Of a DNA stretch of 64,000 nt, positions 1,586-61,886 are shown piece after piece (the first letter of the stretch is position 1; every line of letters begins with the position of its first letter). The translations under genes were made by a program, and so were the position numbers. The notes beneath the pieces were generated by a model. The model was not told the origin of the DNA, searched no databases, and was given only the letters and a program-made list of their open reading frames with translations. The stretch covers positions 930,001-994,000 of the forward strand of contig NC_089436.1 in the NCBI RefSeq assembly GCF_026210795.1, read 5' to 3'. The DNA comes from Rhizophagus irregularis. Its lineage: Eukaryota; Glomeromycota; Glomeromycetes; Glomerales; Glomeraceae.

Positions 1586-4341
1586 TAGGGATGCCAAAAG
1601 TTCGGTTATGACCGATCATAACCGGTTTTTACCGGTTCGGTTACGGTTCGGTTCCAGTCTAAAACCGACCGGTTAACCGACGGTTTTATATATAAAAAAA
1701 CCGATCAAAAAACCGATACTGCTAATTGATTATTAAATGACGATATATTACAAATTTGATACATATGATATTAAATAACTTGTTTTTATTATTCTGCGGA
1801 AATTATATAAGCTGTAAATCACTGCACCATTACTAAAATTAGTTTATTGGCTTATTTTCATATGCAAATGTTTTTTTGTAAAGTGCGCTTAAAAAAAAAA
1901 AAAATTTATTAAAATATTTTTATTCTTTTTTTAACAAATCATCAAAGTATCTATTTATTAATTTTTTTTGCCTAAATAATTGATTTTAAAATTAATGGAT
2001 AATTTTGATGTTGACTCAAACTATACTTCAGAAGATGAGAGTGAATATTCTTTTGGGAGTTCCTCTCAACACTCAGCGTATAGTTTAGAAATGCACAGAA
2101 ATGATATGATTTTAGATGATGATAATACAAATCAGCAGGAACTTGATGATGAGGAAAATGAAGATGATGAAAACCAAAGTAATAGAACGCCATCTGATGT
2201 ATGGGAGCATATAGATAAAGTAACAGATCCAGAAAAACCTAAATGTAAGATTTGTAATAAATTTTTTTCAGCAAAAAGTTCTACAACAACATTGCGAAAT
2301 CACATTAAAAAATATCACAAACATATTCATAGAGAAGCCAACCAAACAACTCTTAAATTTAAGGGCAACATTACTTCCTTTTATGATAAAGAAAAAAATG
2401 CTGAATTCGTTAAACTTCTTATTAAATGGATAGTAATTGACATGCTACCATTTTCTCTTGTTGATAGTGTTTATTTCAATGAATTTATACAAAAATTAAA
2501 TCCAAAATTTAGATGTCCAGGTCGTACTACATTAAAAAATGAAATAATGTCTGAATTTAAATCTAGGCGTGAACATATTGTTGATTTTGTTAAAGATATT
2601 CCAGGTCGTTGCTCAATTACAACTGATATATGGTCAAGTATTAAAAATGAAGCATTTATTGGAGTTACAATTCATTTTATTACTAATGAATGGAAGTTGA
2701 AGCATTTTACACTTGAAGTTTTGCGAATAACTGGTTCTCATACTGGAAATGCAATTTATGAAATTCTCAATAAACTTTTAGTAGATTTTGATCTCAAACA
2801 AAAAATTATATCCATTACTACTGATAATGGAAGTAATATGGTTGTGGCTTGTAGATTGTTAAAAAATGATTTTGACATTCAAACACCTGCATTAGATTTT
2901 ATTCATTCTCGTTGTATATGTCATATATTAAATCTTGCAGTAAATGCAGGATTAAAACATGTAGAAAATTTAATTAAGAAGTTAAGAAAAATAGTAAAAC
3001 GTGTTAGGAGAACCCAATTATATCTTGAGGAATTAGAAAGATTAGCAATTGCTGCTAATCATACATTTAAGCATCCAATTTTGGATGTTAAAACCAGATG
3101 GAATTCTGTATTCCTTATGGCTGAACGTGCATTAATTCTTAAGGATGACTTATTAATAATAAAATCTCGACATCAACCACTTCAGGATATTTGGCTTAAT
3201 GAAAGGGAATGGGAAAAAATTGAAGTAAGTGTTAATTTTTATAATAATTATTAAATTATTATTTTATATTTAATTATTAATTACAAGTTTTAATTTTAGC
3301 ATCTGGTTAATTTATTATCACAATTTCATATTGCTACAGCCGAACTTTCCACACAAACATATCCAACAATAGCATATGCAAGAGTAGTACTTTTAGGTTT
3401 ACTTGTTGATCTTAATGAAAATAGAGGTCATAACTATTCTCTTAGTGAAGTTCTTTTGGCAATCCGTAATAAAATTCAAGAATATTGGGCTCACATTGAT
3501 AAAATGACTCATGTTCCAGCATTTTTTGACCCAAGGTACAAAACAATTGCATACAAAAACTTGGAAATCAATGAGATTCTTGAACCCATTCGTAATAATT
3601 TTCCAGATTCAGCTTTAAGTAATTTGCCATCTAATAATAATGCATCTATATTTGTTCAACGTTTATCATCTGTACGTCAACAAAGAAATTCAAATACTGA
3701 TGAATTGTTAAAATACTGGGAATCAGCAGATGCAAGTTTTGATATAGAACCATTATCATGGTGGCATGCTCATTCAACAGAATACCCTATATTATCAAAA
3801 ATGGCCCAGAGTTATTTATCTGTACAAGCTTCTTCAGTACCTGTGAACAATTATTTTCTTTGGCTGGTAATGTGGTAAGTAAAAAAAGAAATAGGTTGGA
3901 TGAGGATACAACTAGGGCATGTTTGTGTTTAAGAAGTTGGATGATTGAAGGAATTGAATAACTTAAATATTTTAATTTAGTATAATGAATTTAAATATAT
4001 TAATTATATATAAGGAGTTTCAATATTTTCCAGCAAAAATTTACTAAATTTAAACATTATTAGCATTATTCATTTATTAACATTTATTAGTATTTTTTTT
4101 ATTGGTTTATTGACAATTATTTAGTTATTTTTTTTTGTAAAAATCATTAATAAAAAACTTTTAATAAGTTTAATGATATTGTTTATTAACGAATTATTAA
4201 TAAATCAATAAAATTTAAAATTCGGTTTTGTACCAGTTTTACGGTTCGGTTTTACCGGTCGGTTATGCGGTCAGTTCAGTTTTGGTTGAAAACCGCGGTT
4301 TTAAAACTGAAACCGAACCGAACCGACCGTTGGCATCCCTA
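1586..4341 (+). mobile_element. hAT-superfamily DNA transposon, 2756 bp, complete ends
   Basis: The ends are inverted: the left begins TAGGGATGCCAA and the right ends TTGGCATCCCTA. The element is flanked by a perfect 8-bp direct repeat TTTGGAAT at 1578-1585 and 4342-4349, the target duplication length of hAT elements. Subterminal regions carry many copies of short ACCGGTTCGGTT-type motifs in both orientations (1597-1700 and 4224-4330), typical transposase-binding arrays. It encodes a BED-finger transposase with one intron. It landed a few codons before the stop of a MULE-type gene on the opposite strand. The perfect duplication suggests a fairly recent insertion, although the transposase frame is already broken near its end. 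Confidence 0.93.
1995..3961 (+). pseudogene. hAT transposase (BED zinc finger), one frameshift near C-terminus
   Basis: The start is ATG 1995. Exon 1 is 1995-3224, the intron 3225-3299 (GTAAGT...TTTTAG) and exon 2 starts at 3300; the join is in phase 0. The N-terminus is acidic. A BED-type zinc finger has C84, C87, H103 and H108. The catalytic core shows ITTDIWSS and ITTDNGSNMV with KTRWNSVF downstream, matching the RNase H-like fold of hAT transposases. In exon 2 the C-terminal dimerisation segment starts normally (YLSVQASSVP) but then leaves frame around 3843-3850. The expected continuation (EQLFSLAGNVVSKKRNRL) is in another frame and ends at 3961. One missing base explains this, either a real lesion or a sequence error. 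Confidence 0.88.
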
Positions 4342-18357: not shown

Positions 18358-19739
18358 TTAGATTTTTCCTTTTGCGAAAAATTTCAGGTCGTCATTATGA
18401 CGAAAAATATTAATTAATTCAGGAAAATACAAGTGCCTGCTCGTATAAAAAGCTTGGGGATGGATTTTTTGTTGTCGAAATTTATTTCGTTCTAAATCTG
18501 AGAATTTTTTCTCTTCCGCAATATCAAATTGGTCAGATAGTTCGGATGGATCTGGGTCATCACAAATAGCAGTTACCCAACTTCCTAATAACTCATATAA
18601 TTTAGATGCAGTGGGACGCTTTGAAGGATCAGGATGCCAACATTGTGTCATTAATTGAATATAAACTTTTGGAGTTCCATCAATAATTTCAGGGCGAAGA
18701 CCAAAGCAAATTTCACTAGCTAATCTGAGATCGTGCGGTCTATCGCACCATGGACGAGAACCTGCAGAAAGAGTCCACATGATAATTCCGAAACTATAAA
18801 TATCTGAAGCCTTCGTTGGTGGATTTCCCTTCAAGATTTCGGGAGCAACATAAGGAAGAACTCCAAATATTTCATTGGTATCTCTTTTATCAATTGGACC
18901 ATGTAATCCTACATCTGCAATACGTGTATCGACCGAGTCTGGTTCATTTTCAACCAATAAATTACCTCCATGAAGATGGCCATGAATTAATCCACATTCG
19001 TGAATATTTTCAACACCACCAGATATCCCCCAAAGCATATCTACAATATCTCTCCAACACAGCATTCCTTGTGCTTCATCAAGATATGAATGCAAATCTC
19101 CATTCTCATAATATCTCATGACGAACATGTAATTCGAGGTAGGATCCTTTGTAATGCCAAAACAATCTGCAACACTTCCACTTTGTAGACATCGATGATA
19201 TTTATAAAGCTAAAAAAAAATTTATGTAAATTAAAAATTCAGTGATAATAAAACACTAAAACACTTTAGAAATTATAACTTACTTGTTTAAAATATTCTT
19301 CGCTAATATTTTGCGAATTGTTAAGTCTTTTAAGAGCAACTTTTATAGGTCCATTACGTGTCCATTGTTCAGCATCTTCATCCCACACCCATCTAGGACC
19401 TTCCATCCAAACTGCTGAATAAATAGTGCTAAATGCGCCTCCTTTATTTGTGTTTTCTATGAGATCGAATTGGTCGAAATTAACATATTCCAAGTAATCC
19501 ACACTTTCACTCGCGTGCAACTGTGTGTGTTTAATAAAATTATCCATATTAATATTTCCACTCGTCCAGTTTTTAAAATTATCTTTCAGAGCATTAATTT
19601 CACAATCTTTACACCATCCAACGCTACTTCGTTCCTTCCTACAATCTAAACATTTTCCAAAGTCAATATTCGACTTTGTTTTTGACTCATTCTCAATAAA
19701 ATCCATATAATCTAGATCCCCATTTTGTCGAGAAGACAT
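18358..19739 (-). CDS. Tyrosine-kinase-like protein, probable pseudokinase (copy 1)
   Basis: Minus strand: exon 1 runs 19739 to 19284 and exon 2 from 19209 to 18358 (435 aa; intron GTAAGT...TTTAG). A second in-frame ATG three codons upstream (19748) is also possible. A leader intron seems to end just before the ATG. The N-terminus has a zinc-ribbon-like C30xxC33...C43xxC46. The glycine-rich loop is weak (NKGGAFST) and the VAxK lysine is kept (VALKRL). The catalytic loop reads LIHGHLHGGN, with His230 where the proton-acceptor Asp should be. The metal-binding motif is ADVG, and YVAPE and SDIYSFGIIMW follow. The fold is a protein kinase, but without the catalytic Asp phosphotransfer is unlikely, so a scaffold or regulatory role is inferred. 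Confidence 0.9.
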
Positions 19740-26699: not shown

Positions 26700-29600
26700 A
26701 TCAACTTTGAATTACATGCTGCCTTGATTTTGCGAAACCTAATAATAATGGTGCCAAAAATTTGATTGTTGACATTTCTTTGACAGCGTAATTACATGTA
26801 TATACGTACTATTTATTACTAAATTTTCTCTGTTTAATAAAGATAGATTGATCAGCAAAATGGCAAATATTAATTTTTAAAATAAACTCTTAGAAATTTT
26901 TAAATCGTTATAGAAGAGATTTTTGTGAAATTAATGAAATATTTATTATATTTACCAATCACTTTAATTTCTATTATGCGACATGACGTTAGTTTTAATG
27001 CAATAGTTGTCAAAAAAGTTATCTCCGTATTTATTCATGAAAAAAAAAGTTATCCCCGTAAAATCACCTAATTTTTTTAATTATAACATGCTAATTAATC
27101 TTGTTTATCGTTCCTTTCGCAAATAAACATTTGCATTTAATTAATTAAAATAAAGAATTTTTTTTCTTTGCATGTGTAAGTTCACGTGAACTTCATAAGA
27201 ATCTTTTGACGTAAGTTTAAAGTTAGTAACACGAAATAATACAACTTAAAAAAAAATTTCATGATAATTTAGCATTATACCATCACCATTATTAATCGTG
27301 AATTTTTTTTCTTTTTTATTTTGGGAACAAGTAAAACGCGTGATTAGAGGTTACAATAAACCGGTTTAGAACCGGGTATCGTTTAAAACCAACCGGATAA
27401 AGATTTACGACTAGAAATATTAATAAGTTTTATTCATAAATATTTCCAAGTTTATATTACCAACCAATTAGTTAAGTTCACGTGAACTTCATAACGTAAG
27501 TTGATAGATTATTTTAAAGTTAGTAACACAAAAATAATACAATTTATATAATTTTTAAGCACTTACCCTATTGAAATGCATGCTGATCATATTAATATAT
27601 GATTTAAATCCTACAAATGTCGTTTTAATAGTTCACAACTTAAAAAAAATTTCGATAATGTTTTTTATTGAAAACAACAAAAGTATTTATATACCATTAC
27701 CATTACCACTATTATTTAAACGACAACCTTCGGAACAAAATTTAGAAATTTTATCGATCTTTGTTACTCCCGTGTGATCAACAAAACAACAGTGTGATTG
27801 ATTTAATTAAACTTGCATGTGTCACTTAACCATGAAAAGGCTTAAAAAACATATAAAAGTAGCTAAAAATTATCCATTAAGCTCAGAGCTGAACTCCTCT
27901 ATCCTCTCCTATTAAAAAAAAAAAATTAAACATTTTTGTTAATTGTAAGTTTTTCCGATAAAATCAAACAAGTTTGTGTTTAAGAAATTAAAAATGGTTG
28001 GTTTGTATTTTCATTTTGCGTAATGGAATCACTTCACGCGCAAAGCGTAATTGATTTGACCTCATATATTTAAACGATATATGTAGGTTAAGTCCGTACT
28101 TTTGCTGCTCTCGCCAAAACGTTATAGCTAATTCCACTCCACGTGTTGATATTTACTGGTGACACACTATAGTTATTGGGTAAGGGCTGAGATCCTTTCC
28201 CATTTCCTTTCCCTTCGTCCCTTTCCTTCATATTTCCAACATGAATGCCACTTTCCATATAAAAAAAATTTTGAAACTTAATTTTTTTTGCTTCGCGTCG
28301 TGATAATTCCAAAATATTGATCTACCATCTAATGATCTACATGATTTTTAAGTTCAATATACAGTAAATATACAATAAGAGTGTGAAGTTGTTTGGCGGA
28401 CGCAAATTGATTATTAACACAAACAAATTTTTTAGAGTATACTTGAGTAACTTACTAAATTATTTTTTGTTTTTAGAATATTTAAACATGTCTTCTCGAC
28501 AAGATGAGGATCCAGATTATATGGATTTTATTGAGAATGAGTCAAAGACAAAGTCGAATATTGACTTTGGAAAATGTTTAGATTGTGGGAAGGAACGAAG
28601 TAGCGTTGGATGGTGTAAAGATTGTGAAATTAATGCTCTAAAAGATAATTTTAAAAACTGGACGAGTGGAAATATTAATATGGATAATTTTATTAAACAC
28701 ACACAGTTGCACGCGAATGAATGTGTGGATTACTTGGAATATGTTAATTTCGACCAATTTGATCTCATGGAAGACACAAATAAAGGAGGCGCATTTAGCA
28801 CAATTTTTTCAGCAGTTTGGATGGAAGGTCCTAGATGGGTATGGGATGAAGAAGCTGAAAAATGGACACGTAATGGACCTGTAAAAGTTGCTCTTAAGAG
28901 ACTTAACAATTCACAAAATATTAGTGAAGAATATTTTAAACAAGTAATATATAGTTTTAAAGTGTTTTATTTATCATTGAATATTTGAATTTTATGAGTT
29001 TATTTTAATTTACATAATTTTTTATAGCTTTATGAATCTCATCGAAGCTTACAAAGCGGAAATACTGCAGATTGTTATGGAATTACAAAGGATCCTACCT
29101 CGAATTACATGTTCGTTATGAGATATTATGAGAATGGAGATTTGCATTCATATCTTGATAAAGTACAAGGAATGCTGTATTGGAGAGATATTGTAGATAT
29201 GCTTTGGGGGATATCGGGTGGGATTGAAAATATTCACGAAAATGGATTAATTCATGGGTATCTTCATGGAGGTAATTTATTGGTTGAAAATGAACTAGGC
29301 TCAGTCAATGATATATGTATCGCGGATGTAGGATTACATGGTCCAATCGATAAAAAAGATACTAATAAAATATATGGAGTTCTTCCTTATGTTGCTCCTG
29401 AAGTCTTGAACGGAAATCTACCAACGATGGCTTCGGATATTTATAGTTTTGGAATTATTATGTGGACTCTTTCTGCGAGTACTCGTCCATGGTGCGATAG
29501 ACCGCATGATCTCAGATTAGCTAGTGAAATTTGCTTTGGTCTTCGCCCTGAAATTATTGATGGAACTCCAAAAGTTTATATTCAATTAATGACACAATGT

Positions 29601-30160
29601 TGGCATCCTGATCCTACAAAACGTCCTACTGCATCTAAATTGTCTGAATTATTAGGAAGTTGGACAATTGCTACTTGTGATGACCCAGAACCATCTGAAT
29701 TATCTGACCAATTTAATATTGCTGAAGAGAAAAAATTCTCAGATTTAGAGCAAAATAAATTTCAACAACAAAAAATCCATCCCCAAGCTTTTTATACGAG
29801 CAGACTCTTGTATTTTCCTGAATTAATTAACATTTCGTCATAATGACGATCTGAAATTCCTTGCAAAAAGAAAAATCTAATTCGATTATATTCAAACTTT
29901 TTCGTTTCCTTCTTTATGAATATATAATGTTATGATAAAAATTTTATTTTATGATATAATATATAAAAAGATTATAATATGTATATAGATTATTACCGTT
30001 TCAAAAAGGATTATAGAATATTTTCGTTTCTTTTAATGTTTCACTCATAAAAATATTCATAGATGTTCATTAATTATAGGTAATTCGTAGGACTTCAATC
30101 GTATCTTTAAAATTTGAATCAATATATGAGATTTTTTAAACCCACGTTATTTTTTAAGCT
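26700..30160. repeat. Right arm of the inverted duplication
   Basis: Reverse-orientation counterpart of 18020-23410. It is shorter because it lacks the 1.95 kb block and a shorter stretch of about 40 bases near 23335-23375. It carries the second kinase-like gene on the plus strand. The arms differ at many positions, so the duplication is not brand new. Confidence 0.75.
28488..29843 (+). CDS. Tyrosine-kinase-like protein, probable pseudokinase (copy 2)
   Basis: The start is ATG 28488, placed directly after a probable leader intron ending TTTTTAG at 28476. Exons 28488-28943 and 29028-29843 give 423 aa (intron GTAATA...TTATAG). It is very close in sequence to the copy at 18358-19739, with the same zinc-ribbon-like C30/C33/C43/C46 and VALK lysine (K137). 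The catalytic loop reads LIHGYLHGGN, so Tyr230 replaces the catalytic Asp, whereas copy 1 has His. ADVG and YVAPE are retained. A two-base deletion near 29830 shifts the last codons, so this copy ends LINISS while copy 1 continues another 13 or so residues. It is a probable pseudokinase. Confidence 0.9.
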
Positions 30161-33120: not shown

Positions 33121-33709
33121 CACTGGTCGAAATAGTCCAAATCAGCTAAAAATCGGATGTCCAATTTTAGGCTGAATTTGGTGATAAAGATGGCCGAATT
33201 ATCAATTCAAAAAAAGTTCCGATTGGCAGGCCGATCAATGCCGATCAGAATGTCAGAATTGTATCTGAATTGTTTAGTAATTTTTGATCTGAATTGTTTA
33301 AAAAACATTTTCCGATCAAGATAAATTTTGTCTGAATTATAGCAATTTTAGTTTGAATTTTATCTGAATTACGGCAAATTTAGATTGAATGTAGATAATT
33401 TTAGTTTGAATTTTGTCTGAATTATGGCAAATTTTAGATGATTTTTTTCGAATTTTGTCTGAATTTTAGATTGAATGTAGATGATTTTTCCAAATTTAGT
33501 TTTAATTTTATTCAATTTTATTAGACATTTTAAATTACATTGTTATTAAAAATTACATTTAATATATATTCTTTAATTAATATGTCTACCTTTCTAATCT
33601 AAAACACACCTATGCTATATTAATACCTATAATAAATCATTCTAAACTCGCTATTTTTAACCTAGTAAAGAATAAAAAACAAAAAGAATTAATAAAAAAT
33701 TAAGCAAAA

Positions 33710-35510
33710 AACTCACCAACAATTTACATTTCGAAACTCACCTTTAAATTACTTCTATAGCTCCTATACCGAAATCTTGCGTGCCAAATATTCGCCATAT
33801 TTTCATTAATATATCCAAATATACTCTCGTTAATAGACACGAAGGCTGGTCGCCTAAAAAAAGAGTAAAATGAAACGTTAGTAAAAAACGCTTCGTTAAA
33901 TGAATTAATTGAAAGTAATAACTAGTAAAAAATATTCCTCACCAAACTTCCGATGAGTTGTCCAAATATCGAAGAACTGGCTGTTTATAAATAGAAAAAA
34001 AATGATACATTAGAAACGTTTCATTAAGAAAATTATTTATTCAAAAAAACTCTATTCGGTGTTCTGAATAAAAAAAAAACAAGAAAAATGAACGTTATCT
34101 AACGTTCATTATAAAAAAAATTAAAATATTCGAAGTTTTACCTTCGAAATTCTATCTGAAAGAACCGAAAACCTACAAAAAACCAAATGAAATGTTAGTA
34201 ACGTTTCGTATTAAATAAAAACAATATTTTCGAAGTTACCTTCAAATAGAGTCCGGAACCCGTATCTTCCTTCGCGTTCTGGACTTACAAAAAAATAAGA
34301 ACGAATATTAGTCAAATAAACACAAATAAACAAAAAAAAAACTTTTTTTCAAAGTTTCACCTTCAAAATACCGCCCAGGAAGCCGAAAACCTAAAAAAAA
34401 GAAAACCGAAATGTTGGTCAACGTTTCGTTCAAATAAAATAACAAAAAAAAAATTAGAATTTCGAAGAGGTACCTTCAAAATTCTATCCAGATATCCGAA
34501 AACCCTAAAAAAAAAGAAAATCGAAACGTTAGTCAACGTTTCGTTCAAATAAAAAAAGAAAAATGCAGAATTTCGAAGAAATACCTTCGAAATTCCATCC
34601 AGACATACGAAAACCAGAAAGCTAAAAACCTAAAATAAAAGAAAATCGAAACGTTAGTCAACGTTTCGTTCAAATAAAAAAAGAATAAAAAATTGGAATT
34701 TTGAAGAGTACCTTCGAAATTCCATCCAGATATACGGAAACCAGAGAGCAAAACCTAAAAAAAAAGAAAATAATCGAAACGTTAGTCAACGTTTCGCTAA
34801 AATAAAACAAAAAAAAATAAATATCTATGATTGAAGTCACCTTCGAAATGGAGTCTGAACCCATACCTTTGGCGTTCTGGACCTACAAAAAAATAAGAAA
34901 AATGAACGTTAGAGAACGTTCGTTAAAAAAAAAGATTTTTTTTTTCTGAAGTTTACCTTCAAAATGGGACCATTCTGTACCTATAAAAACAAGAAAATGA
35001 ACGTTAGCTAATGTTTGTTAAATAAAACTAAAAAAAAAATTCAAAGGTTTATACCTTCAAAATGGAGTTCAGCGGCGTCCTGGGCCTGCAAAGAAAAAAA
35101 ATAACGTTAGTTACCTAACGTTCCGCATTAAATAAAATAAAAATTCTTCGGGGCTTTACCCTCCTTCCAAGTCTCCAGAAGGTTCCTAAAAGTGAAAAGA
35201 AATTGGAATGTTTAATAGTAATAGTATCTACTAACATTCATAACTTAAAAAAAAAAACTTCTCTCTTTATTTACCTTCTGAGAAGTTTTATCAATTACGA
35301 AGCGTCTTGAGAGTCTACAATAAAAAAAAAGAAAGTGAAACGTTAATAAATGTATACTAACGTTCCAATTTAAAAAATAATCCCTTCTCTCTAATACCTT
35401 CTAAGTGCCGTTTCGTTAGTTCTGAGGTTGTCCTAAATGAATTTTTCCACCATCCGCATGAGGATCAGAATGTGAAATGGTGTCTGGAAGGTCCCTACAA
35501 AATAAAAAAA
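33710..35510 (-). repeat. Array of about 14 micro-exon-like units
   Basis: On the minus strand, short segments of about 30-50 bases are bounded by an acceptor-like (T)nTAG or TGTAG and a donor-like GTACC, GTGA, GTAAA or GTAT (plus-strand CCTAAAAAAA / CCTACAAAAA and TACCTTC / CACCTTC, spaced 100-130 bases). Typical segments end ...GGATGGAATTTCGAAG before GT. The intervening intron-like parts carry AACGTTAGTCAACGTTTCG palindromes. Open frames such as 34545-34751 merely read through segment and intron and are not genes by themselves. Whether the units are spliced is unknown. Confidence 0.6.
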
Positions 35511-36499
35511 GATTGGAATTTTTTTTTATAAAAAAAAGATGGATATCCGATGATCCATCTGATCAATAAAAAAAGAGCTGGTTTTCGGAAATACCGGCAT
35601 ATCAATCTATCGTTAAAAATTAGGCGTTTTTTTTGCATTTATTAAAATATTTTGCAGAAAAAACATTCCGGTATTTTGCCGATTGCTCCAATTGCTTGTT
35701 CATACAATTTCCTTTTTCATTTTGAATAATTTTTTACTCGCTTAACTCCAAACCTCCTCCATTTGAATTAGCTGATTTGAAAGCTAAAGAGAAACAATTC
35801 TGATCTAATAATAAATAAGGAAAAATATCATTAAATTGAAATGCCAGAAATAAAAAAAATTATTATTACCGGCATACCAATATCCATCCACAAAATGGGT
35901 CATTAAATCAGAACATTAGAACCTGCAAATAATAAAAAAAGATATTTTTTTGATACCAGCATACCGATATCATGTACAAATAAAGAATATTTTTATTAAA
36001 TCGGAATGCCGGAACCTACAAATGATATAAAAAAATAAAAAAAAATATTTTTTTATTATTTTCATTTCATTACAGTAAATCAGAATGCTTGGAATAAAAA
36101 AAACTTTTGTTTTCTTCAACACCAGCATACTGATATTTATTAAATCGGAAAAAATTGAGATTCTTTTATCAATTCCCAATTTGAACCATAGAGCAATAAA
36201 AGAGAAATATTTTGTTTTAAGAAAAAAAAAGGTTAAAAGGTTTAATATTTATCCAAAAGAAGCAAAAAAAAAGTAATCTTGAAGCTAAAATTATACTTTT
36301 AATACAATACGCGTCGCGTCTTATTATAATTGATCAGCAAATAGTAATTATTATAATAGTTTAATTTTGATTGATACCCAATTGAAATATGAGCAAATTT
36401 CTAATAAATCAAAGTAAGAAAGTACAATTCAATCATAAATAACATATATCAAATAATATGAAAAGATTCGACCATAAATCATTCAATGTCAAATATATC
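35511..36499. other. Interior of the 5.6 kb element, decayed repeats
   Basis: Contains further weak units with CCGGCATACC(A/G)ATATC and GAACCTGCAAATAA words (35560-36030) at roughly 80-110 base spacing, followed by AT-rich sequence. No credible gene. Confidence 0.35.
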
Positions 36500-36859: not shown

Positions 36860-38146
36860 CAGTCGGGTCCGAAAGTGACGCCCGATTTTGTACGGTGTTA
36901 CGATACACAAAATTTACATTATTTATACCCCTTTTTTTTATTTTTAAATGTTTTCTCACAATTTCATAACCTAATAAACGCGTTGCAAAGTTAAAAAAAT
37001 AATGTCACATAGAACTGAGTTAACTTCTCAAGATAAAGGAAAAATACTAGCATATATGGAGAATTTTAACCCTGCACAAATAGCAAGAAAAATGGGTCGT
37101 GACCCCACCACAATAAGAAGAATTATTGACAGATACAAGAAGACAGGGAAAACTGAAAATTTACTTAGATCGGGGTGTCCACCTGCTCTCAATAATAATG
37201 AGAAAAATGCACTCATAAACAAAGTTACACAAGATCGACGCGAACCTTTACATGAAGTCATTAATACATTAGATTTAAATTGCAGCCTTACAACTGCTAA
37301 AAGAGCATTACATAGTGTTGAAATTTATTCCCATGTTGCTGCAAAAAAACCCTTTATCTCAGAAAAGCATGCATTAGCTCGTATTAGTTGGTGTGAGAAA
37401 TATAAAGAAAAAACAGCTTATGATTGGGCACAAGTTATTTTCTCAGATGAATCAAGTGTTGAGATTGGCAAGCAGTCACGACAAATAAGAGTTTGGAGAC
37501 ACACAGGGGAAAGGTTTAACACTGAATGCTTGACACCTATCTTTAAAAGTGGTCGAAAATCAGTCGTGGTTTGGGGATGTTTTGCAGGAGGGATAAAAGG
37601 GCCATTAATTTTTTGTGATGAAAATAAAGAAGGAAATGAAAAAATCAATTCAAATACTTACATTAGAATCCTAAATTCATATCTGTATCCATTTCAGCAT
37701 ACAGTTCATGAGTTAACAGGAAGGGCTGCAATTTTTCAACAGGATAATGCACCCATACATACCGCGAAAATAACCAAGGATTGGTTGAAGAAGAATAAAA
37801 TTGTGGTTATTGATTGGCCGGCAAATTCTCCCGATCTAAATCCAATAGAAAACATCTGGAAGCAGTTAACGGACAATATCCAGAGTTGTAAAGTCTTTCC
37901 AAGAACTGTGGATGAACTTAAAGTTGCACTAAGTGAAGAATGGGAAAATTTGGATTGCTCCATTTTTGAAGAGGTTGTTGCTTCAATGCCACAAAGAATA
38001 AATGCAATACTAGAAGCAAGGGGAGGGCCAACACATTATTAACCATTTTTAGTAATTATTTTTTATGTGAATTTTAATGAAAATCAATAAAGTTTTGCCA
38101 TTTTTGGCATTAATTTTAAATCGGGCGTCACTTTCGGACGTGACTG
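36860..38146 (+). mobile_element. Complete Tc1/mariner transposon, 1287 bp
   Basis: About 29-base terminal inverted repeats that begin CAGTCGGGTCCGAAAGTGAC on the left and read CAGTCACGTCCGAAAGTGAC as complement on the right, with only two differences. TA lies at both borders (36858-36859 and 38147-38148). It contains one uninterrupted transposase gene. Length and structure are those of an autonomous element. Confidence 0.95.
37002..38042 (+). CDS. Tc1-type transposase, DD34E, intact
   Basis: ATG 37002 opens a 346-aa frame with no intron. The N-terminus holds two helix-turn-helix DNA-binding segments (about residues 8-75; IARKMGRDPTTIRRIIDRY is the first recognition region). The catalytic triad is D149 (FSDES), D248 (QQDNAPIH) and E283 (SPDLNPIEN), with exactly 34 residues between the second Asp and the Glu, the Tc1 spacing. 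VVWGCF and WPANSPDLNPIENIW are typical family blocks. All required parts are present, so cut-and-paste activity is possible. It lies inside the subterminal repeat of a larger element. Confidence 0.96.
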   Translation: MSHRTELTSQDKGKILAYMENFNPAQIARKMGRDPTTIRRIIDRYKKTGKTENLLRSGCPPALNNNEKNALINKVTQDRREPLHEVINTLDLNCSLTTAKRALHSVEIYSHVAAKKPFISEKHALARISWCEKYKEKTAYDWAQVIFSDESSVEIGKQSRQIRVWRHTGERFNTECLTPIFKSGRKSVVVWGCFAGGIKGPLIFCDENKEGNEKINSNTYIRILNSYLYPFQHTVHELTGRAAIFQQDNAPIHTAKITKDWLKKNKIVVIDWPANSPDLNPIENIWKQLTDNIQSCKVFPRTVDELKVALSEEWENLDCSIFEEVVASMPQRINAILEARGGPTHY

Positions 38147-38700
38147 TACATATTTGAATATTGGGTAAATTTTAGGTTGATTTGTCATTTTGTCTGATTT
38201 TTTTTTTGATTTCAACCAGTATCAATCAGCCGTCAACCAAATATAATGATTTTTTGCCAAATTTTTATTGAATTTTTATTAAATTTTTATTGAATTGTCA
38301 ATTTTCCATAAATTTGAAGTACATATTTGAATATTGGGCAAATTTTAGGTTGATTTGTCATTTTGTCCGATTTTTTTTTTGATTTCAACCAGCATCAATC
38401 AGCCGTCAACCAAATATAATGATTTTTTGCCAAATTTTTATTGAATTTTTATTGAATTTTTATTGAATTGTCAATATTCCATAAATCGGAAGTATATATT
38501 TGAATATTGGGCAAATTTTAGGTTGATTTGCTATTTGTCTGATTTTTTTTTTATTTCAACTAGCATCAATCAGCCGTCAATCAAATATGATGATTTTTTG
38601 CTGAATTTTTATTAAATTGTCCGATTGGCATCAATCAGATGTGTCGATTTGTAATGTCAGTTGATTTTGGTCTGATTTTTTGCTGATTTTCCATATGTCC
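38147..38700. repeat. Tandem subterminal repeat (part 2), about three units
   Basis: Continuation of the roughly 180-base tandem repeat interrupted by the Tc1 element. Units begin near 38155, 38330 and 38500 with TATTTGAATATTGGG(C/T)AAA. Small differences between units mark them as old duplications. Confidence 0.75.
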
Positions 38701-49289: not shown

Positions 49290-49690
49290 TTCATCTGGAC
49301 CCTCTCAACCAAAAAAATCAAGAAAAAAGAAACATTAGTACGTTTCTTTAATATCAAAAAAAATATTCTCCCCCTCTATTCCTTACATTCTAAGTCCGGG
49401 TTTGTCTAAATAATCCGGCAACCTAAAGAAAAAAAGAATTGAAGAAATATTAGTACGTTTCTTCAATATATTAAAAATTTCCCTTTCCGGCTCCCGTTTT
49501 ACGCACTCACATTCCGATTTCCAAGTCCGGGTTCGTCTAAATAGTCTGGCAACCTAAAGAAAAAAAGAATTTGTCAATGTATTAAAAAAATAAAACTTTC
49601 CCTCCCGCTTCCCGCTAACCTACATTTCATTTTTCAAGTCCGGGTTCGTCTAAGAGCTCGTCCTAAAGAAAAAAAATGGAAAGGAACGTT
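49290..49690 (-). repeat. Array of three to four micro-exon-like units
   Basis: On the minus strand CTTTAG acceptors precede segments such as GTTGCC(A/G)GA(C/T)TATTTAGAC with CCGGACTT near the end. Spacing is about 120 bases. Donor-like sites are weaker here (GTTAGC; one GAGTGC). The GTTGCCGGA...CCGGACTT consensus is shared with the array at 55790-56610. Long pyrimidine tracts lie in front of each acceptor. Confidence 0.55.
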
Positions 49691-50199
49691 AGTAAAATAA
49701 TAAATAAGAACTTACCTTTTGCCAATTCGCGTTTTTTAAATAAAAAGTATAAAAAAAATGGCTTTAAAAAACAATCTTTTAACCGTTTTTTTTTTAAAAA
49801 GAAATTTATCAACGATCAGTCATATGACCGATATCGAACTGATCAGAATCTGCAAATCGCAGATTACCGGAAAAAAAATTCTGCAATGTCGGCCTTCTTT
49901 AATTGCTTTAATTGCTAACATTTCAACAGAAGGTGATAGTATGTTTGTTTGACAAGTGTTTTATGAAAATGTTGACGCGTATTTAAATAATTAACGCGTA
50001 TTTTATGGCGAATTTAGCGCGAAATTTTGTTCTTCTCAGTTAAAAAATGAATGAACTATTATTACAATATGTAGTCTTTATAATTAATAGATAAAGAATA
50101 GAAAGGAAAAAATGGGTTTGGTCTTTATATTACTACGCAATCAAAAGCCTGGAAGACCTCCTCTGTATCACCGAAGGGAAACCACGAAATATTAAGATT
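49691..50199. other. Intergenic, nothing recognised
   Basis: Contains overlapping short frames but no recognisable protein. Two ACGCGTATTT(T/A) words lie at about 49975-50000. Confidence 0.35.
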
Positions 50200-53969: not shown

Positions 53970-55485
53970 ATGTCTAGTTTCAAAAAAGCCTCCGAATTAT
54001 TAAATTCAAGTAATGATACTGTCACTATAAATGAATTAAAAGGAAGATTAACTCATTTAGAAAATAATCAACTTTCTGAAATACACAAATCATTATCAAA
54101 ATCGTCTAATAAAGAAACATTTGATCGTCCTTGTATAGAAACTTTACAAAAGTATGTCTCTTCCACAAAACCAAAAAATACCAATAAAAATACACGTTTA
54201 TAGGTTTCTAGATTTGAAAGCTTTGTAAATGACACTTAACCAAACATAGATTTAATAACCCTTTATGACAAAAAGGCCATTATTGCAATGTTGTTATGTG
54301 AATTTATTATAGTTATTCAAACAAAAGATAAAAAGAAATACAAAGCAAACTCACTGTATAATGGTATATGTGCTATAAATCCGTTTTATCAGGAAATGTT
54401 TAAAGATAGAGAACCATTCAATATACATGAGGATTTTAAATTTAGAATAGTGCGTGATACATTACATACAAGAATGATAGAGTTGGAAGAAATCAATAAT
54501 AGTGAATATAATGGAGCTGATCCTCTTACTGATGAAGAAATGGTAAAAATCTTTAAACAATTTGATATATCAAGTAATTCACCAGATGGATTATTAAGAA
54601 GAGTCTTTTTATGGGTAGGATGTTGTACAGCATGTAGAGGAGGATCATATCATAGTATTATGGCTAGCCATTTTAAAAAACGTGATGATAGAGAAGGGAA
54701 GATATTATCACTAAACAAATTCTAATCAACAACCTGTTCATATTATTCTACCAGATGAACCAGGAACATATGGAGCATGTCATGACATTAGAAAATACTT
54801 GAGTTTACGGCCTAATAATAATGCAGAAGAAACTTTTTTCTTCGTATTAATAAAGATATTGAAGGTATAATTTTATATGATTTCTTTCTCTACAATATTT
54901 TTAACACAAACTAATAAATTTAAATATATTATTTAGAAAATTGGTATTTTACTTTTCATTTAGGTCGAGATAAATTATCTGGAATGTATTTGTAATATTA
55001 CGGGTATTGACTGCATAAACAGAAGAATTGTAAATCATTCATTACGAAAACGTACTGCACAAAAGTTAAATGACGAAGGATTGGATTCACAAGCTATAAT
55101 GAATGTAACATTGCACCGGTCCATTGCAGAATTAAATGCGTTAGTATATATTATAATATAATATTTAATTTTTTTATTTTGTCATTAAAATTCATTTATT
55201 TTATAGATATCAAACACAAAATGAAAAGCAAAAATTGGACATCGCAAAGTTAACACTTCCAGGCATTTCAAAGGTATCTAATTAATTCTTTATTATAAAT
55301 TATCATTATAATTATTGATTTTTTTACACTTTAATTATAAAAGGATATTTCAATGCAAGAAAATTTGGAAAAATCTGCCAAAAATCTAAATACGGAACAA
55401 AGAATTGAAAATTTATCATCTCAGAAAGAGACTAAAACAGAACCATTCACTGAAATTCAAAATATCACAATTTTTTTATTTAAAG
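53970..55485 (+). pseudogene. Crypton-like tyrosine recombinase, degenerate copy 2
   Basis: The ATG at 53970 (MSSFKKASELLN) begins an N-terminal part. A core-binding segment has KKYKANSLYNGICAINPFYQ. The catalytic domain starts LLRRVFLWVGCCTACRGGSYHS (Arg-Gly-Gly, first catalytic Arg). After an intron (GTATAA...TTTAG, ending 54963) come HSLRKRTAQKL (HxxR) and LHRSIAELN. After a second intron (GTTAGT...TATAG) comes AYQTQNEKQ, the likely Tyr nucleophile. A last exon (MQENLEKSAKNL...) follows another intron. Lesions: a stop at 54201, another stop near 54240, frameshifts near 54720 and 54840. The end is split by an hAT-like element; rejoined, it stops two codons later. Confidence 0.7.
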
Positions 55486-56934
55486 TAAGGATGACGCCGC
55501 AAATAGGCAATTGCGGAATAATTGCGATTTGCGGTATTGCGGAACATTGTGGATTTTGAAGTCTAAATATCTGCAAATCCGCAATTCACAATTGTTCGCA
55601 ATTCCGCAAATATTTTGCAATTCTGCAAATGATCTAAAGTACCGCAATTCAATTGCAGTACAATTGCGGTACTTTACGAAATTGCGGAACATTTGCGGAT
55701 TTGCGGATTTGCCAATTATAGTCCGCCAGTCTGACACAGATTATCAGATGAATTGCGTAGTACAAATCATCTGATGATCTCTTTTTCTTTTTTATTGAAG
55801 TTTCCGGACAAAAATTATGACTGAACTTTTTAAAATGGAGTCATGTAGATAAGAAAAAACCGGACAGCAAGTTGTTTTTTTTAATAAATTTTTTTTTTTT
55901 TGATTTTGTAGAGTTGCCGGACGAAAAGTATGGCTGGACTTTTGAAATTGAGGTAAGAGAAAAACTGGGAAGGATTTTTGTTATTTTTTTTTTAATTTAT
56001 TTTTTTTTTCATTTTTGTAGTGTTGCCGGATGAAAAGCTCAAGATAAGGGAAGACCGGGAAGGGTTTTCATTATTTTTTTAATAACTAATTTATTTTTTT
56101 TTGTTTTTGTTGAGTTGCCAGGAAGAAAAGCATGACCGGACTTTTGAAATTAAGGTAAGGAAGGACCAGGAAGGGTTTTTGTTGCTTTTTTTTTTAATAT
56201 TTTTAAACTAATTTATTTTTTTTTCATTTTTGTAGAGTTGCCAAACGAAAAGCACGACCAAACTTCTGGAATTGAGGTAAGGGAGGACCGGGAAGGGATT
56301 TTGTTACTTTTTTTTAATAATTTTCACTAATTTATTTTTTTTTTCGTTTTTGTAGAGTTGCCAGATGAAAAGTATGACCAGAATTCTGGATTGAGGTAAG
56401 GGAGGACCGGAAAATTTTCGTTATTTTTTTTTGATAAATTTAATTAATTTATTTTTTTTTCTTTTCGTAGGGTTTTAATAATTAAAGACACGACCAGAAT
56501 TTTGAAATTGAGGTAAGGGAGAGCTGAAGGAAAAGATGTTTGTTGCTAATTTTCTTTAAAAAGAAACGTCACTAACATTTCTTTTCTTTTTATAGGGTTG
56601 CTGGATGAAAATATATATAGCAGGGAGACTTATTTTAAAAATGGACAAAATTGTCCAGAATTTTTTCTAAGAAACGGCACAGTTATGCAATTTAGAAAAA
56701 TATCGGTCTATGCTTAAGACGAATGATAAACAAACAAACAAATAAATAAATAAATTTATTATATTGATTTAAAAAACATTTTTATTTATTTATCGTTATA
56801 AACGTTTAAAAAATAATTTATTATTTAAAAACATTAGCCAATCAGAATTGTGAAATTGCAGATTACTAACCGCAATTTGACTCCAAAATCCGCAATATTG
56901 CGGATTTGAAAAATCATTTGAGGGCCCATCCTTA
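55486..56934. mobile_element. Non-autonomous hAT-like element, 1449 bp, carrying a micro-exon array
   Basis: Begins TAAGGATGACGCC and ends GGGCCCATCCTTA, inverted with a few mismatches. It is flanked by a perfect 8-bp repeat ATTTAAAG (55478-55485 and 56935-56942). Subterminal zones are dense in GCAATTGCGG / CCGCAATT words in both orientations. No transposase. The central half is an array of splice-site-bounded units. It inserted at the very 3' end of the recombinase gene. Confidence 0.85.
55790..56610 (+). repeat. Array of micro-exon-like units inside the hAT-like element
   Basis: Segments bounded by (T)nGTAG on the left and GTAAG on the right lie at 55912-55952, 56236-56276, 56356-56395 and 56471-56512 (40-42 bases). 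Two degenerate units lie between (from 56021, and one ending 56154), and a further acceptor is at 56594-56595. The consensus is AGTTGCCGGATGAAAAG, then GACCGGACTT, then TGAAATTGAG before GTAAG. Intron-like parts are 78-90 bases and begin GTAAGGGAGGACCGGGAAGG. Units are not multiples of three, so reading frame would rotate on splicing. Confidence 0.75.
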
Positions 56935-56942
56935 ATTTAAAG

Positions 56943-57139
56943 CGTAAAGATGATTTAATTGATAATTTTCGTCTTAAGTTTGTTAAATGTAGTAATTTTA
57001 CTATTAACATTACAAAATAAATAATTTGTCTAGTTATCTAGAGTAAATATGTACTAGAAACGCATAAATAAATATATATAAATTGATCATCCAGTAGGTA
57101 TAAGTACAATCGGATAACTGTATAAATGGTGCTGATCAG
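56943..57139. other. Short spacer, nothing recognised
   Basis: AT-rich sequence after the hAT-like element. Confidence 0.3.
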
Positions 57140-57310
57140 GGATATGTTTTAATCTATCACGCCGAGGAAAATTTTGTATTTGATTTGCATAAATGTTTAC
57201 ATTATATTAATCAACCTAAAAAAACTTGGCTTTCTAACAAGTTTTTTTGCGAATATAGTTGCCACAATAACTATTGTGTGCTAATTGAATCATGCTGAGG
57301 AAAACACCGA
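57140..57310. repeat. Outlying copy of the 52-53.7 kb repeat
   Basis: Contains TCTATCACGCCGAGGAAAAT, GCATAAATGTTTACATTATA, CCTAAAAAAACTTGGCTTTC and GCCACAATAACTATTGTGTG in the same order as module (a)+(b) of the main array. Confidence 0.7.
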
Positions 57311-58276
57311 TCTATCACACTTTAGTCACTTTACGATAATGCAGAAAAATGCTATAAGAAAATTACGTTATGTAAGAATGGTAGAATAATTTTCCTTTTT
57401 ATATAATTTCAGCCAGAAATTATACCTTTAATATTATTATCATGCTATTTCATTTAAATTTTTTATTATTATAAACTAATTTAGCAATAATTACGATTTT
57501 GTATCAAATAAAGGTAAACGGAATAGCATATGCAATTTGTTACGGAATATACGTAAAGAAATAACCAGTTGTTGAACTGATTTTAAATTATTGATAAATC
57601 TAAAAAAGATAATGTAATAGTGAAATGTTCCCATGTACGCGAGGTACCAACAAAAAATGATTATCTGTTATCATATGTAAGAGATATATGCTGAAAATGC
57701 AAAAAAAGAAAGAACAGTATTGTTTAAAAATATATATATATGGTGCATAACATCTAAAGACATCAAATAAAATTAGTGATTTTAAAATGTTAACTACTTA
57801 ATAAAATTTTATGATAATTGAAAATATAAACCGATAATATTATACTTTAAGTTCTTCTCTTTCGAATTATCAGATTATTTTTTCCATAACTGTCATATTT
57901 CAGGAGCTATTAAGATTTAAAGTTGATGTATTTTCATATTAATTTATATAATTTTATATGTAAATGGGAAAAATTTGGAATTTTTAATCACGTGAAAATG
58001 ATTTTAACCAATCATATTAATTTAATTTATAATACATAAAATGATCAATATCTTTATTACCAAATTTAGTAATAATCTAACTTTATTTAGTAATGATCTA
58101 ACTATATTTAGTAATGATCGGCATAAAAATAAATTTCGGACTATTGATGCCTTTAGGTGTTATGCACCATACACACGAATTTTCCCCAAGGTCCAAACAC
58201 AGAATTTTTCATTTCAGACAAAATTCGTTGACCTCGAAAGTGAAATTATTATAAAACTCTTTGCTTAATTTAAAAC
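57311..58276. other. Intergenic, nothing recognised
   Basis: AT-rich. A short threefold repeat TAGTAATGATCTAACT(A/T)TATT at about 58065-58120. A 75-codon frame there is low complexity and not supported. Confidence 0.35.
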
Positions 58277-60999: not shown

Positions 61000-61610
61000 G
61001 ATTCACCTAAAAAAGAAAGTGTTGAAATGTTAACGGACGTTTTGTTAAAATAATAAGTTGACTCAAAGAAAAACCCACTCACCAAATTCTTATGCGTCTA
61101 AAGAAATCCGAAGAAACAACCATCTAAAAAAAGGGATGAATGAAACATTAGGAAACATTTTATTAAGAGAAATGAATTAAATGATTTCTCACTGAGATCC
61201 CATGACTCTAGTGTCCGTACTATCATAATATCAAATGATCTTACAAAGGTACTATACTGTATACAGGACGCTTGTCTTTAATTCAATCAACTCAGCTTAA
61301 ATCAACCTTCATATAATCAATCCTATGATAGTACCTCATAGATCTGCCTAAAAAAAAATGAAATATTAATAACCGTTTTGTTAAAGAAACAAAGAAAAAC
61401 TTACTGAATTCATGTACAAAAAGCCAAAGAACTAACTGTCTATTAAAGAAAGAGAACAAACTGTCAGTTAATGTAAATTAGAAGTCGGAGTAAAGAAGAA
61501 AAAGTAATAATTTGCACTTACCAAAATTTCACGTCCAAAGAAACCTAAAGAACCGCCTAGCTAAAAAAATGTAAAATGTTAATAATACTCATTTAAAGAA
61601 GGATAAAATA
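61000..61610 (-). repeat. Array of micro-exon-like units
   Basis: Minus-strand segments preceded by TTTTTTAG or TTTAATAG and followed by GTAAGT or GTGAGT. Examples are the segment ending GGACGTGAAATTTTG before GTAAGT (61521), one ending GTACATGAATTCA (61405), one ending GACGCATAAGAATTTG before GTGAGT (61083), and a longer one of about 155 bases (61200-61345). Intron-like parts contain ATTAACATTTTA or AACGTCCGTTAACATTTC words. The layout is the same as the three other arrays. Confidence 0.6.
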
Positions 61611-61886
61611 AATAAAAAAATTGCACATACTGAAATCTTGCGTCAAAAAATTTTTTTTAAAAAGGAAGTTTTGATAGTTTGATCGAAACTTTTAAAGGTT
61701 TTGATCAAATCGAAACTTTTTATTTTTTTTTTTAAGAGTTTTATTAAAACTTTTTTAACAATTATTTTTTTTATAATTATCGTTAAGCCCTGTGAAACGA
61801 TCTGTGCAGCCAGTGTGCAGCAGTGATCGGACTCAGCGCACAAAAAGTTTTTAGAAAAATTGAAAAATACTGAAATCTGCAGTAAA

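What the first reader, a model, noticed from the sequence alone, without database searches (positions are those of the whole stretch)
55790..56610. Transposon-borne array of splice-ready 41-base micro-exons
At least four segments of 40-42 bases have near-consensus acceptors ((T)nGTAG) and donors (GTAAG) and repeat every 115-130 bases, inside a 1449-bp non-autonomous hAT-like element with a perfect 8-bp target duplication. Splice borders are better kept than the segment interiors, which suggests selection on splicing or recent spread of the unit. Since 41 is not a multiple of three, each extra unit would rotate the frame. Such an array could let a transposon be largely spliced out of, or modularly added to, host transcripts. 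I know of no description of this, but cannot search.
Basis: partly seen in the sequence, partly recalled or inferred. Interest (0 to 1): 0.8.

Follow-up and report, generated by a model that had tools for sequence, protein, structure and literature searches.

The report
Transposon-borne chains of tiny exons
A small mobile DNA element in the genome of a plant-root fungus carries a row of tiny, splice-ready, apparently non-coding exons, and other mobile elements in the same genome carry similar rows of different sequence, which suggests a little-noticed kind of transposon cargo whose splicing still has to be shown with RNA data.

Summary
The window is from Rhizophagus irregularis. The element (55486-56934, 1449 bp, 8-bp TSD) holds diverged units; four have a 40-42-nt segment with acceptor and donor (55912-55952, 56236-56276, 56356-56395, 56471-56512). 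Unit 3 has lost its donor, unit 4 its acceptor.

The interpretation needs changing. In recent copies the splice borders are not better kept; insertions decay like the rest, with many CpG changes. The unit also occurs in elements with other ends (TAAGGTTGC). The array lies between a conserved leader and an AATAAA-rich end, with gene-like polarity: first unit without acceptor, last without donor. The window array keeps no reading frame.

The pattern is wider than reported. The same strand-specific architecture (exons roughly 25-50 nt, introns roughly 65-100 nt) recurs in arrays of different sequence in three TIR element types and elsewhere in the window. The branch-like CTAAC/TTAAC lies in a small hairpin with differing arms: 20 of 36 introns at P<=0.05 against 0 of 45 controls; 21 of 30 in freshly fetched relatives.

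Best reading: non-autonomous DNA transposons carrying a mostly non-coding, multi-mini-exon transcription unit. No RNA data were available; splicing is inferred and function is open.

The parts
55478..55485 (.). left target-site duplication ATTTAAAG
55486..55504 (+). left terminal inverted repeat TAAGGATGACGCCGCAAAT
   Evidence: pair I13
55504..55720 (+). subterminal repeats of TTGCGGAATTGCGG type, in both orientations
   Evidence: D8, D11, I3, I4, I6
55738..55780 (+). conserved leader with a 14-bp hairpin (AGATTATCAGATGA / TCATCTGATGATCT, read by eye) and loop ATTGCGTAGTACAAA; shared by elements with other arrays and other ends
   Evidence: 31 genome sites for the pattern, 0 for the reversed pattern
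55801..55853 (+). first unit: exon-like start without TAG acceptor (TATTGAAG)
55912..55952 (+). mini-exon 2, 41 nt, TTTTGTAG| ... |GTAAGA
55953..56020 (+). intron-like spacer, 68 nt
56021..56043 (+). unit 3: acceptor present, donor ATAAGG instead of GTAAGG; shortened relative to L012, L014 and L013a
56113..56154 (+). unit 4: border TTTTTGTTG instead of TAG; donor GTAAGG at 56155
56155..56235 (+). intron-like spacer, 81 nt, branch-like CTAAT at 56208
56236..56276 (+). mini-exon 5, 41 nt
56277..56355 (+). intron-like spacer, 79 nt, branch-like CTAAT at 56327
56356..56395 (+). mini-exon 6, 40 nt
56396..56470 (+). intron-like spacer, 75 nt
56471..56512 (+). mini-exon 7, 42 nt
56513..56595 (+). last intron-like spacer, 83 nt, CTAAC at 56572 in a hairpin (stem score 19.0, P 0.003)
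56596..56760 (+). last exon: acceptor TTTTTATAG, no array donor; AATAAA at 56741, 56745 and 56749
56916..56934 (-). right terminal inverted repeat ending CATCCTTA
56935..56942 (.). right target-site duplication ATTTAAAG
33600..36100 (-). second mini-exon chain in the window, not similar in sequence to the array (17 introns in the best chain; detector cluster 34173-34956 with 7 introns)
49423..49715 (-). small chain (3 introns, exons 39 and 43) whose exon core resembles that of the array
61348..61630 (-). small chain (3 introns, exons 35 and 35) of other sequence

Best explanation
The element is a non-autonomous, hAT-like TIR transposon whose interior is a non-coding transcription unit: a leader, then a chain of mini-exons separated by short, strong major-type introns, then a last exon with an AATAAA poly(A) signal. 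Shown (sequence level): the anatomy, its recurrence in arrays of different sequence and in other element types, strand specificity, branch-site hairpins, first/last-unit polarity, and absence of a kept reading frame in the window array. Inferred: transcription from the leader, removal of the introns by the spliceosome, and polyadenylation, giving a short tandem-repeat RNA. Inferred too: units multiply by tandem duplication and exchange; whole elements spread through a hAT transposase supplied by another element, and each insertion then decays. The most likely reason for upkeep (weak inference) is that splicing itself helps the source elements, for example by making their transcript pass as a normal spliced mRNA rather than one that feeds silencing. 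A role of the repeated exon RNA is the next guess.
For: Clusters: window +56155-56595 and -34173-34956, against 0 in 3 shuffles and 0 reversed. In 4 of 6 fetched relatives of TE-B/TE-C the detector finds clusters of 5-9 introns on the expected strand, 0 opposite, 0 reversed. Of 6 further leader loci, 3 have clusters of 4-10 introns at the same threshold, 0 opposite, 0 reversed. Array consensuses: 8 of 17 TRF clusters have a tested member with P<=0.05 for donor+branch+acceptor against shuffles; the palindrome arrays of elements with related ends do not (6 of 8 tested). Branch hairpin: 20 of 36 against 0 of 45; fetched relatives 21 of 30 against 1 of 6 and 1 of 6. Polarity: first-unit acceptor TTTGTAA in 8 of 8 elements of the 31-nt family, later pattern-matched units TAG in 51 of 55; in the window family the first unit lacks TAG in 15 of 15 and AATAAA follows the last acceptor in 15 of 15. 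AAUAAA is the main poly(A) signal of this species (PMC10234402, passages). Exons more alike than introns in 43 of 45 pairs of representative units. No kept frame in the window array or L021.
Against: No RNA was examined. Among 11 recent copies donors (12 of 329 cells) and acceptors (5 of 162) changed at least as often as exon interiors (38 of 1801); 5 of the 12 donor changes lie in two rearranged places (L007, L009), and without them donors are about level with exons, not better. The window copy has lost signals in units 1, 3 and 4. Single intron-like pairs are not enriched over the reversed control (99 against 92; shuffled 62). A stricter hairpin test gave only 8 of 40 against 3 of 58. Between TE-C copies exons changed more than introns (108/661 against 137/1317), the reverse. 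No joined intron-less copies were found, though none need exist. 100 kb elsewhere: no clusters. 2 of 6 fetched relatives (L072, L073) and, of 6 leader loci, L062, L066 and L067 gave no cluster at that threshold (L066 gave one at the lower threshold). Some chains are open at or beyond the shuffled 95% level (L071, TE-B, TE-C, L038, L034, L065). TE-B-like and TE-C arrays fall in one similarity cluster, so families are fewer than loci.
Confidence: 0.66

Rival explanations
1. Ordinary minisatellite inside a MITE: a 120-bp unit that happened to look like an exon plus intron was amplified, and the splice look is chance shared by descent.
For: MITEs with internal tandem repeats are known (PMC9659126, passages); recent copies show no protection of borders; elements with related ends carry palindromic arrays that are not splice-like.
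Against: The same architecture recurs on one strand in arrays of different sequence, with branch hairpins whose arms differ, and the first and last units lack exactly the signals that terminal exons do not need.
Confidence: 0.18
2. The chains are remnants of protein-coding genes with repeated small exons (effector-like), captured by transposons and now decaying.
For: L038-type exons are mostly 45 nt and keep a 15-residue frame (70 of 84 codons open, shuffled 95% level 68); L034 has 70 of 71 open (95% level 70), TE-B 90 and 91 (85, 83), TE-C 116 (96); L065 90 (76); L071 147 (97). R. irregularis has SP7-like effectors with protein repeats (PMC11333574, passages).
Against: Exons of 31, 40 and 41 nt break the frame; the window array (40 of 99 codons open, shuffled median 39), L021 (38 of 152), L019, L063, L064, L068 and L069 lie within the shuffled range. 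Protein searches of spliced products were not made.
Confidence: 0.09
3. One reading: the array works inside host transcripts, letting the element be spliced out or added in modules.
For: Acceptors and donors in one direction; ends TAAGG make GTAAGG when the target duplication ends in G.
Against: Only 5 of 12 readable target duplications end in G and 4 of 12 begin with G, so no preference is visible; the last unit has no array donor and is followed by AATAAA, which would end rather than rejoin a host transcript.
Confidence: 0.05
4. DNA-level function: the palindromes (branch hairpins, donor hairpins in two families) are protein-binding sites, for example for a transposase, and the splice motifs are incidental.
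For: Regularly spaced inverted repeats; donor hairpins at P<=0.05 in TE-B of L015 (7 of 12) and TE-C (5 of 17) but not in TE-B of L018 (0 of 9).
Against: Strand-specific poly-T tract, TAG and GTAAG at intron-like distances are not needed for palindromic sites; the detector gives 0 clusters on the opposite strand.
Confidence: 0.05

Closest known systems
MITEs / non-autonomous TIR elements with internal tandem repeats (e.g. Xenopus miDNA4; PMC9659126, passages read)
   Same: Short TIR element without transposase, with an internal tandem array.
   Different: Here the unit has spliceosomal anatomy with gene-like first and last units, recurring in arrays of different sequence.
Introners / introner-like elements (PMC9860276, passages read)
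   Same: DNA-transposon-like elements with TSD and TIR linked to splice signals.
   Different: An introner is itself one intron; here many introns and exons lie inside the element between leader and poly(A)-like end. The words Rhizophagus and Glomero do not occur in its main text.
SP7-like effector genes of R. irregularis (PMC11333574, passages read)
   Same: Same fungus; modular repeats.
   Different: SP7 repeats are protein repeats, with a conserved intron before the first repeat; the window array keeps no reading frame.
Micro-exon genes of schistosomes (recalled)
   Same: Chains of very short exons.
   Different: Those exons are mostly multiples of three and code for secreted proteins (recalled); here 31-, 40- and 41-nt exons break the frame.
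Stwintrons and repeated introns of Hypoxylaceae (search listing only)
   Same: Duplicated fungal introns.
   Different: Nested introns, as described in the listed abstracts, not exon-intron chains in transposons.

Membership tests
hAT superfamily (non-autonomous member) | 8-bp target-site duplication | tested here: met
   10 of 16 copies perfect, 2 with one mismatch, 4 with truncated or mis-set ends
hAT superfamily (non-autonomous member) | short terminal inverted repeats | tested here: met
   TAAGGATG/CATCCTTA
hAT superfamily (non-autonomous member) | mobilised by a hAT transposase whose element has the same ends | tested here: inconclusive
   hAT dimer domain: 836 first-look candidates, 150 scored, 150 matches; I did not look for TAAGGATG ends around them
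MITE with internal tandem repeat | TIR, TSD, no transposase, internal array | tested here: met
   (no ORF of 110 aa or more inside 55486-56934); at 1.4 kb it exceeds the 50 bp-1 kb class used in PMC11075540
Introner | the element as a whole is an intron of many genes | not tested
   host genes were not annotated; no G preference at 12 target duplications
Micro-exon gene | in-frame coding micro-exons | tested here: not met
   window array; several other chains remain open
SP7-like effector | coding tandem repeats after a signal peptide | tested here: not met
   no open frame beyond chance in the spliced window array; signal peptide and SP7 motif not searched
Major (U2-type) spliceosomal introns | GT-AG borders, CTAAC-like branch site, pyrimidine tract at intron-like spacing | tested here: met
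   (sequence only)
Major (U2-type) spliceosomal introns | removal from RNA | not testable with these tools
   no RNA data held

The most novel reading that the evidence does not exclude
R. irregularis hosts a previously undescribed class of DNA-transposon cargo: non-coding genes made of up to about 20 tandem mini-exons, whose introns carry the branch site in a small hairpin. The class is shared by several TIR element families (hundreds of first-look candidate places) and kept by selection for being spliced.
Probability: 0.44. Interest if true: 0.85.

Novelty: new variant of a known kind. Interest (0 to 1): 0.67.

Why it matters
If RNA confirms it, transposons can evolve dense chains of efficient introns without coding for anything. 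That would be a natural test of what splicing alone does for a transcript in a genome rich in transposons and RNA-silencing genes, a possible nursery for new introns and micro-exons, and part of the large unclassified repeat fraction of an important symbiont.

Tried and rejected
Retrocopies: patterns for joined exon-exon junctions found 0 places each; uninformative as absence. Coding: spliced arrays tested for open frames; rejected for the window array and L021; in the 31-nt family 3 of 4 lie within the shuffled range (L065: 90 codons, 95% level 76); not excluded for L038, L034, TE-B, TE-C and L071. Rfam on 54000-58000: four weak matches up to E 1, none near its gathering score. Whole element as an intron through TAAGG ends: no G preference in 12 target duplications. 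Donor hairpins: TE-B of L015 (7 of 12) and TE-C (5 of 17), hardly elsewhere, so not general. A shared exon 3' motif: 9 of 33 distinct exons at P<=0.05, suggestive only. Lower rate of change of signals between TE-C copies (L068-L069 donor 6/124, acceptor 2/58, branch 7/103, exon 108/661, intron 137/1317; L069-L071 donor 0/108, acceptor 0/54, exon 34/603, intron 37/1250) is weakened because sites were taken from the best chain of one sequence.

The hairpin test was devised after seeing examples; a first strict version was weak. The version was applied unchanged to freshly fetched loci, but these were picked as relatives of TE-B (1 locus) and TE-C (5 loci), so they show repeatability on new introns, not on new families. 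Its controls (45) are intron-like pairs, mostly not proven introns. L067 (leader plus a possible further chain) failed the detector and is only tentative.

Rows dropped: one search used 11 of 15 aligned copies (four left out) and skipped columns with fewer than 8 letters. One search tested 1 of 42 members of the largest cluster and 6 of 8 of the palindrome cluster. Searches kept introns of at least 55 nt with branch score at least 5 after redundancy removal (36 of 55 by the count; 30 of 42). One search lists only units that match its pattern.

Full report
Origin. G000 has 32 contigs and 146,748,485 bases; its contig C13 is 5,085,394 bases, exactly the scaffold N50 printed for the 32-scaffold R. 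irregularis DAOM197198 assembly (PMC10234402, passages). The window is C8:930001-994000 of that genome.

Element. The 1449-bp element at 55486-56934 has ends TAAGGATG/CATCCTTA and an 8-bp TSD. Its internal region gave 63 matches in the genome, 40 of 63 candidates scored; a dozen matches including itself are 93-100% identical over nearly the whole query. Of 16 copies scanned, 10 have a perfect 8-bp TSD and 2 have one mismatch; the other 4 had truncated or mis-set ends.

Array. Unit 4 still has TAG in 3 of 15 copies. Among 11 close copies the changes per cell are: donor 12/329, acceptor 5/162, exon interior 38/1801 (24 of these in CpG-type columns), intron interior 71/2452, flanks 153/6261, branch-like 5-mers 0/165, poly-T tract 8/1103. 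Five of the 12 donor changes lie in two rearranged places, in L007 and L009. So borders are not better kept after insertion, and much exon variation is of CpG type.

Relatives. Arrays 65-76% similar, with about ten units in L021, lie in a second TIR family with ends TAAGGTTGCTTGCCGAAAC/GTTTCGGCAGGCAACCTTA; from the flanks printed an 8-bp TSD can be read by eye in all 6 copies looked at. Elements with ends like those of the window element also carry a different array of 31-nt exons with GTGAGT donors (L017-L019; L062-L066; 8-bp TSD found in L018 and L019). Others carry palindrome arrays that are not splice-like (L043-L048). A leader (TTATCNRAN{2,10}GCRYAGTACAA) stands before window-type, L021-type, L038/L040-type and 31-nt arrays: 31 genome sites, 0 for the reversed pattern. 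L067 may carry a further chain behind the same leader, but the cluster detector does not find it. TE-B, about 2.4 kb with other ends and a short duplication of about 2 bp by eye, and the chain at 36100-33600(-) of the window (TE-C; ends not determined) are full of such units; their tandem parts fall in one similarity cluster. First-look candidates, which are rough, number 521 for TE-B and 304 for TE-C, 40 scored each.

Statistics. A donor+branch+acceptor score on TRF consensuses beat 400 dinucleotide shuffles at P<=0.05 in at least one tested member of 8 of 17 array clusters; three of these 8 come from the 100-kb sample and have odd exon lengths. Clusters of at least four introns: two in the window, none in 100 kb at ten arbitrary positions, none in three shuffled replicates, none reversed. 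With at least three introns and a lower threshold: four in the window, none in the 100 kb, none reversed. Single intron-like pairs number 99, against 62 shuffled and 92 reversed, so only the chains are evidence.

Branch hairpin. In non-redundant array introns the branch-like site lies in a small hairpin: mean stem score 13.1 against 7.5 expected, 20 of 36 at P<=0.05; controls 0 of 45. The strongest hairpin of the intron is within 6 nt of the branch site in 27 of 36. Arms differ, for example GAACGTT/AACGTTC, GAAACGTT/AACGTTTC, GAACGGTT/AACCGTTC. Applied unchanged to six newly fetched relatives of TE-B and TE-C, with introns like the earlier ones removed: 21 of 30 at P<=0.05, opposite strand 1 of 6, reversed 1 of 6; the cluster detector fired on the expected strand in 4 of 6 and never on the other. 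An earlier strict version (branch A unpaired) gave 8 of 40 against 3 of 58.

Polarity and ends. In eight elements of the 31-nt family the first unit has TTTGTAA instead of TTTGTAG (8 of 8) and later pattern-matched units have TAG in 51 of 55; the last unit, captured in 6 of 8, lacks the donor. In the window family the first unit lacks TAG in 15 of 15 copies and 3-5 AATAAA follow the last acceptor in 15 of 15. These are shared by descent within a family, so each family counts once.

Coding. The spliced window array has 40 of 99 codons open (shuffled median 39), L021 38 of 152. L019, L063 and L064 lie within the shuffled range, L065 above it; L068 and L069 within, L071 above. L038, TE-B and TE-C exceed and L034 equals the shuffled 95% level; for these coding stays open. 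Between ten representative units of the window/L021/L038 group, exons average 70% identity (shuffled 48%) and intron 5' halves 57% (shuffled 50%), exon above intron in 43 of 45 pairs. Between TE-C copies the order is reversed: exons 108/661 changed, introns 137/1317. So constraint on exon sequence is not general.

Interpretation. The simplest account of chain, strand bias, hairpins, polarity, leader and AATAAA is a spliced, mostly non-coding transcription unit carried by non-autonomous transposons. Insertions decay; upkeep must act on source elements. Which benefit splicing brings is not shown.

Literature. Ten full-text searches listed nothing whose title or abstract start describes transposon-borne mini-exon chains; the library holds only open-licence papers. 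I saw passages only of PMC11333574, PMC9860276, PMC11075540, PMC10639083, PMC10234402 and PMC9659126. PMC11075540 states that two thirds of R. irregularis TEs remain unclassified; words beginning with splic or tandem do not occur in its main text. PMC10639083 reports many minor introns in this species; the donors and branch sites here look major-type to me (judged by eye).

Noticed in passing
window 36978-38039(+): Tc1/mariner-type transposase ORF (DDE_3, HTH_Tnp_Tc3_2) next to the second mini-exon chain; similar repeat sequence lies on both sides of it, including a 173-bp tandem repeat at 38146-38618.
   Followed up: partly
L043-L048 (elements with ends like those of the window element): Internal arrays of short palindromes (e.g. 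GCCGGAACTATTAGTTCCGGC) stand where the mini-exon array would be; not splice-like.
   Followed up: partly
window 1980-3251(+): BED zinc finger ORF with a weak DUF659 match, perhaps a hAT-type transposase relic.
   Followed up: no
window 18361-19209(-) and 29028-29840(+): Two protein kinase ORFs.
   Followed up: no
window 55353-55485(+): Read by eye: an open frame beginning MQENLEKSAKNLNTEQRIENL runs into the element's left target duplication, so the insertion may interrupt a gene in the sense direction; G|TAAGG at the border looks like a donor.
   Followed up: no
L013 (C29:401200-407950): Two inverted copies of the window element flank other array-bearing sequence; one copy is inserted with TSD GTTACTAA in a GGTTACTAA|TAACCG branch-hairpin-like motif.
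   Followed up: no
L027 and L030: A 50-nt exon variant has no donor at the usual place but a GTAAG about ten bases downstream (AAGGACAATTAAG|GTAAG), as if the donor had been replaced.
   Followed up: no
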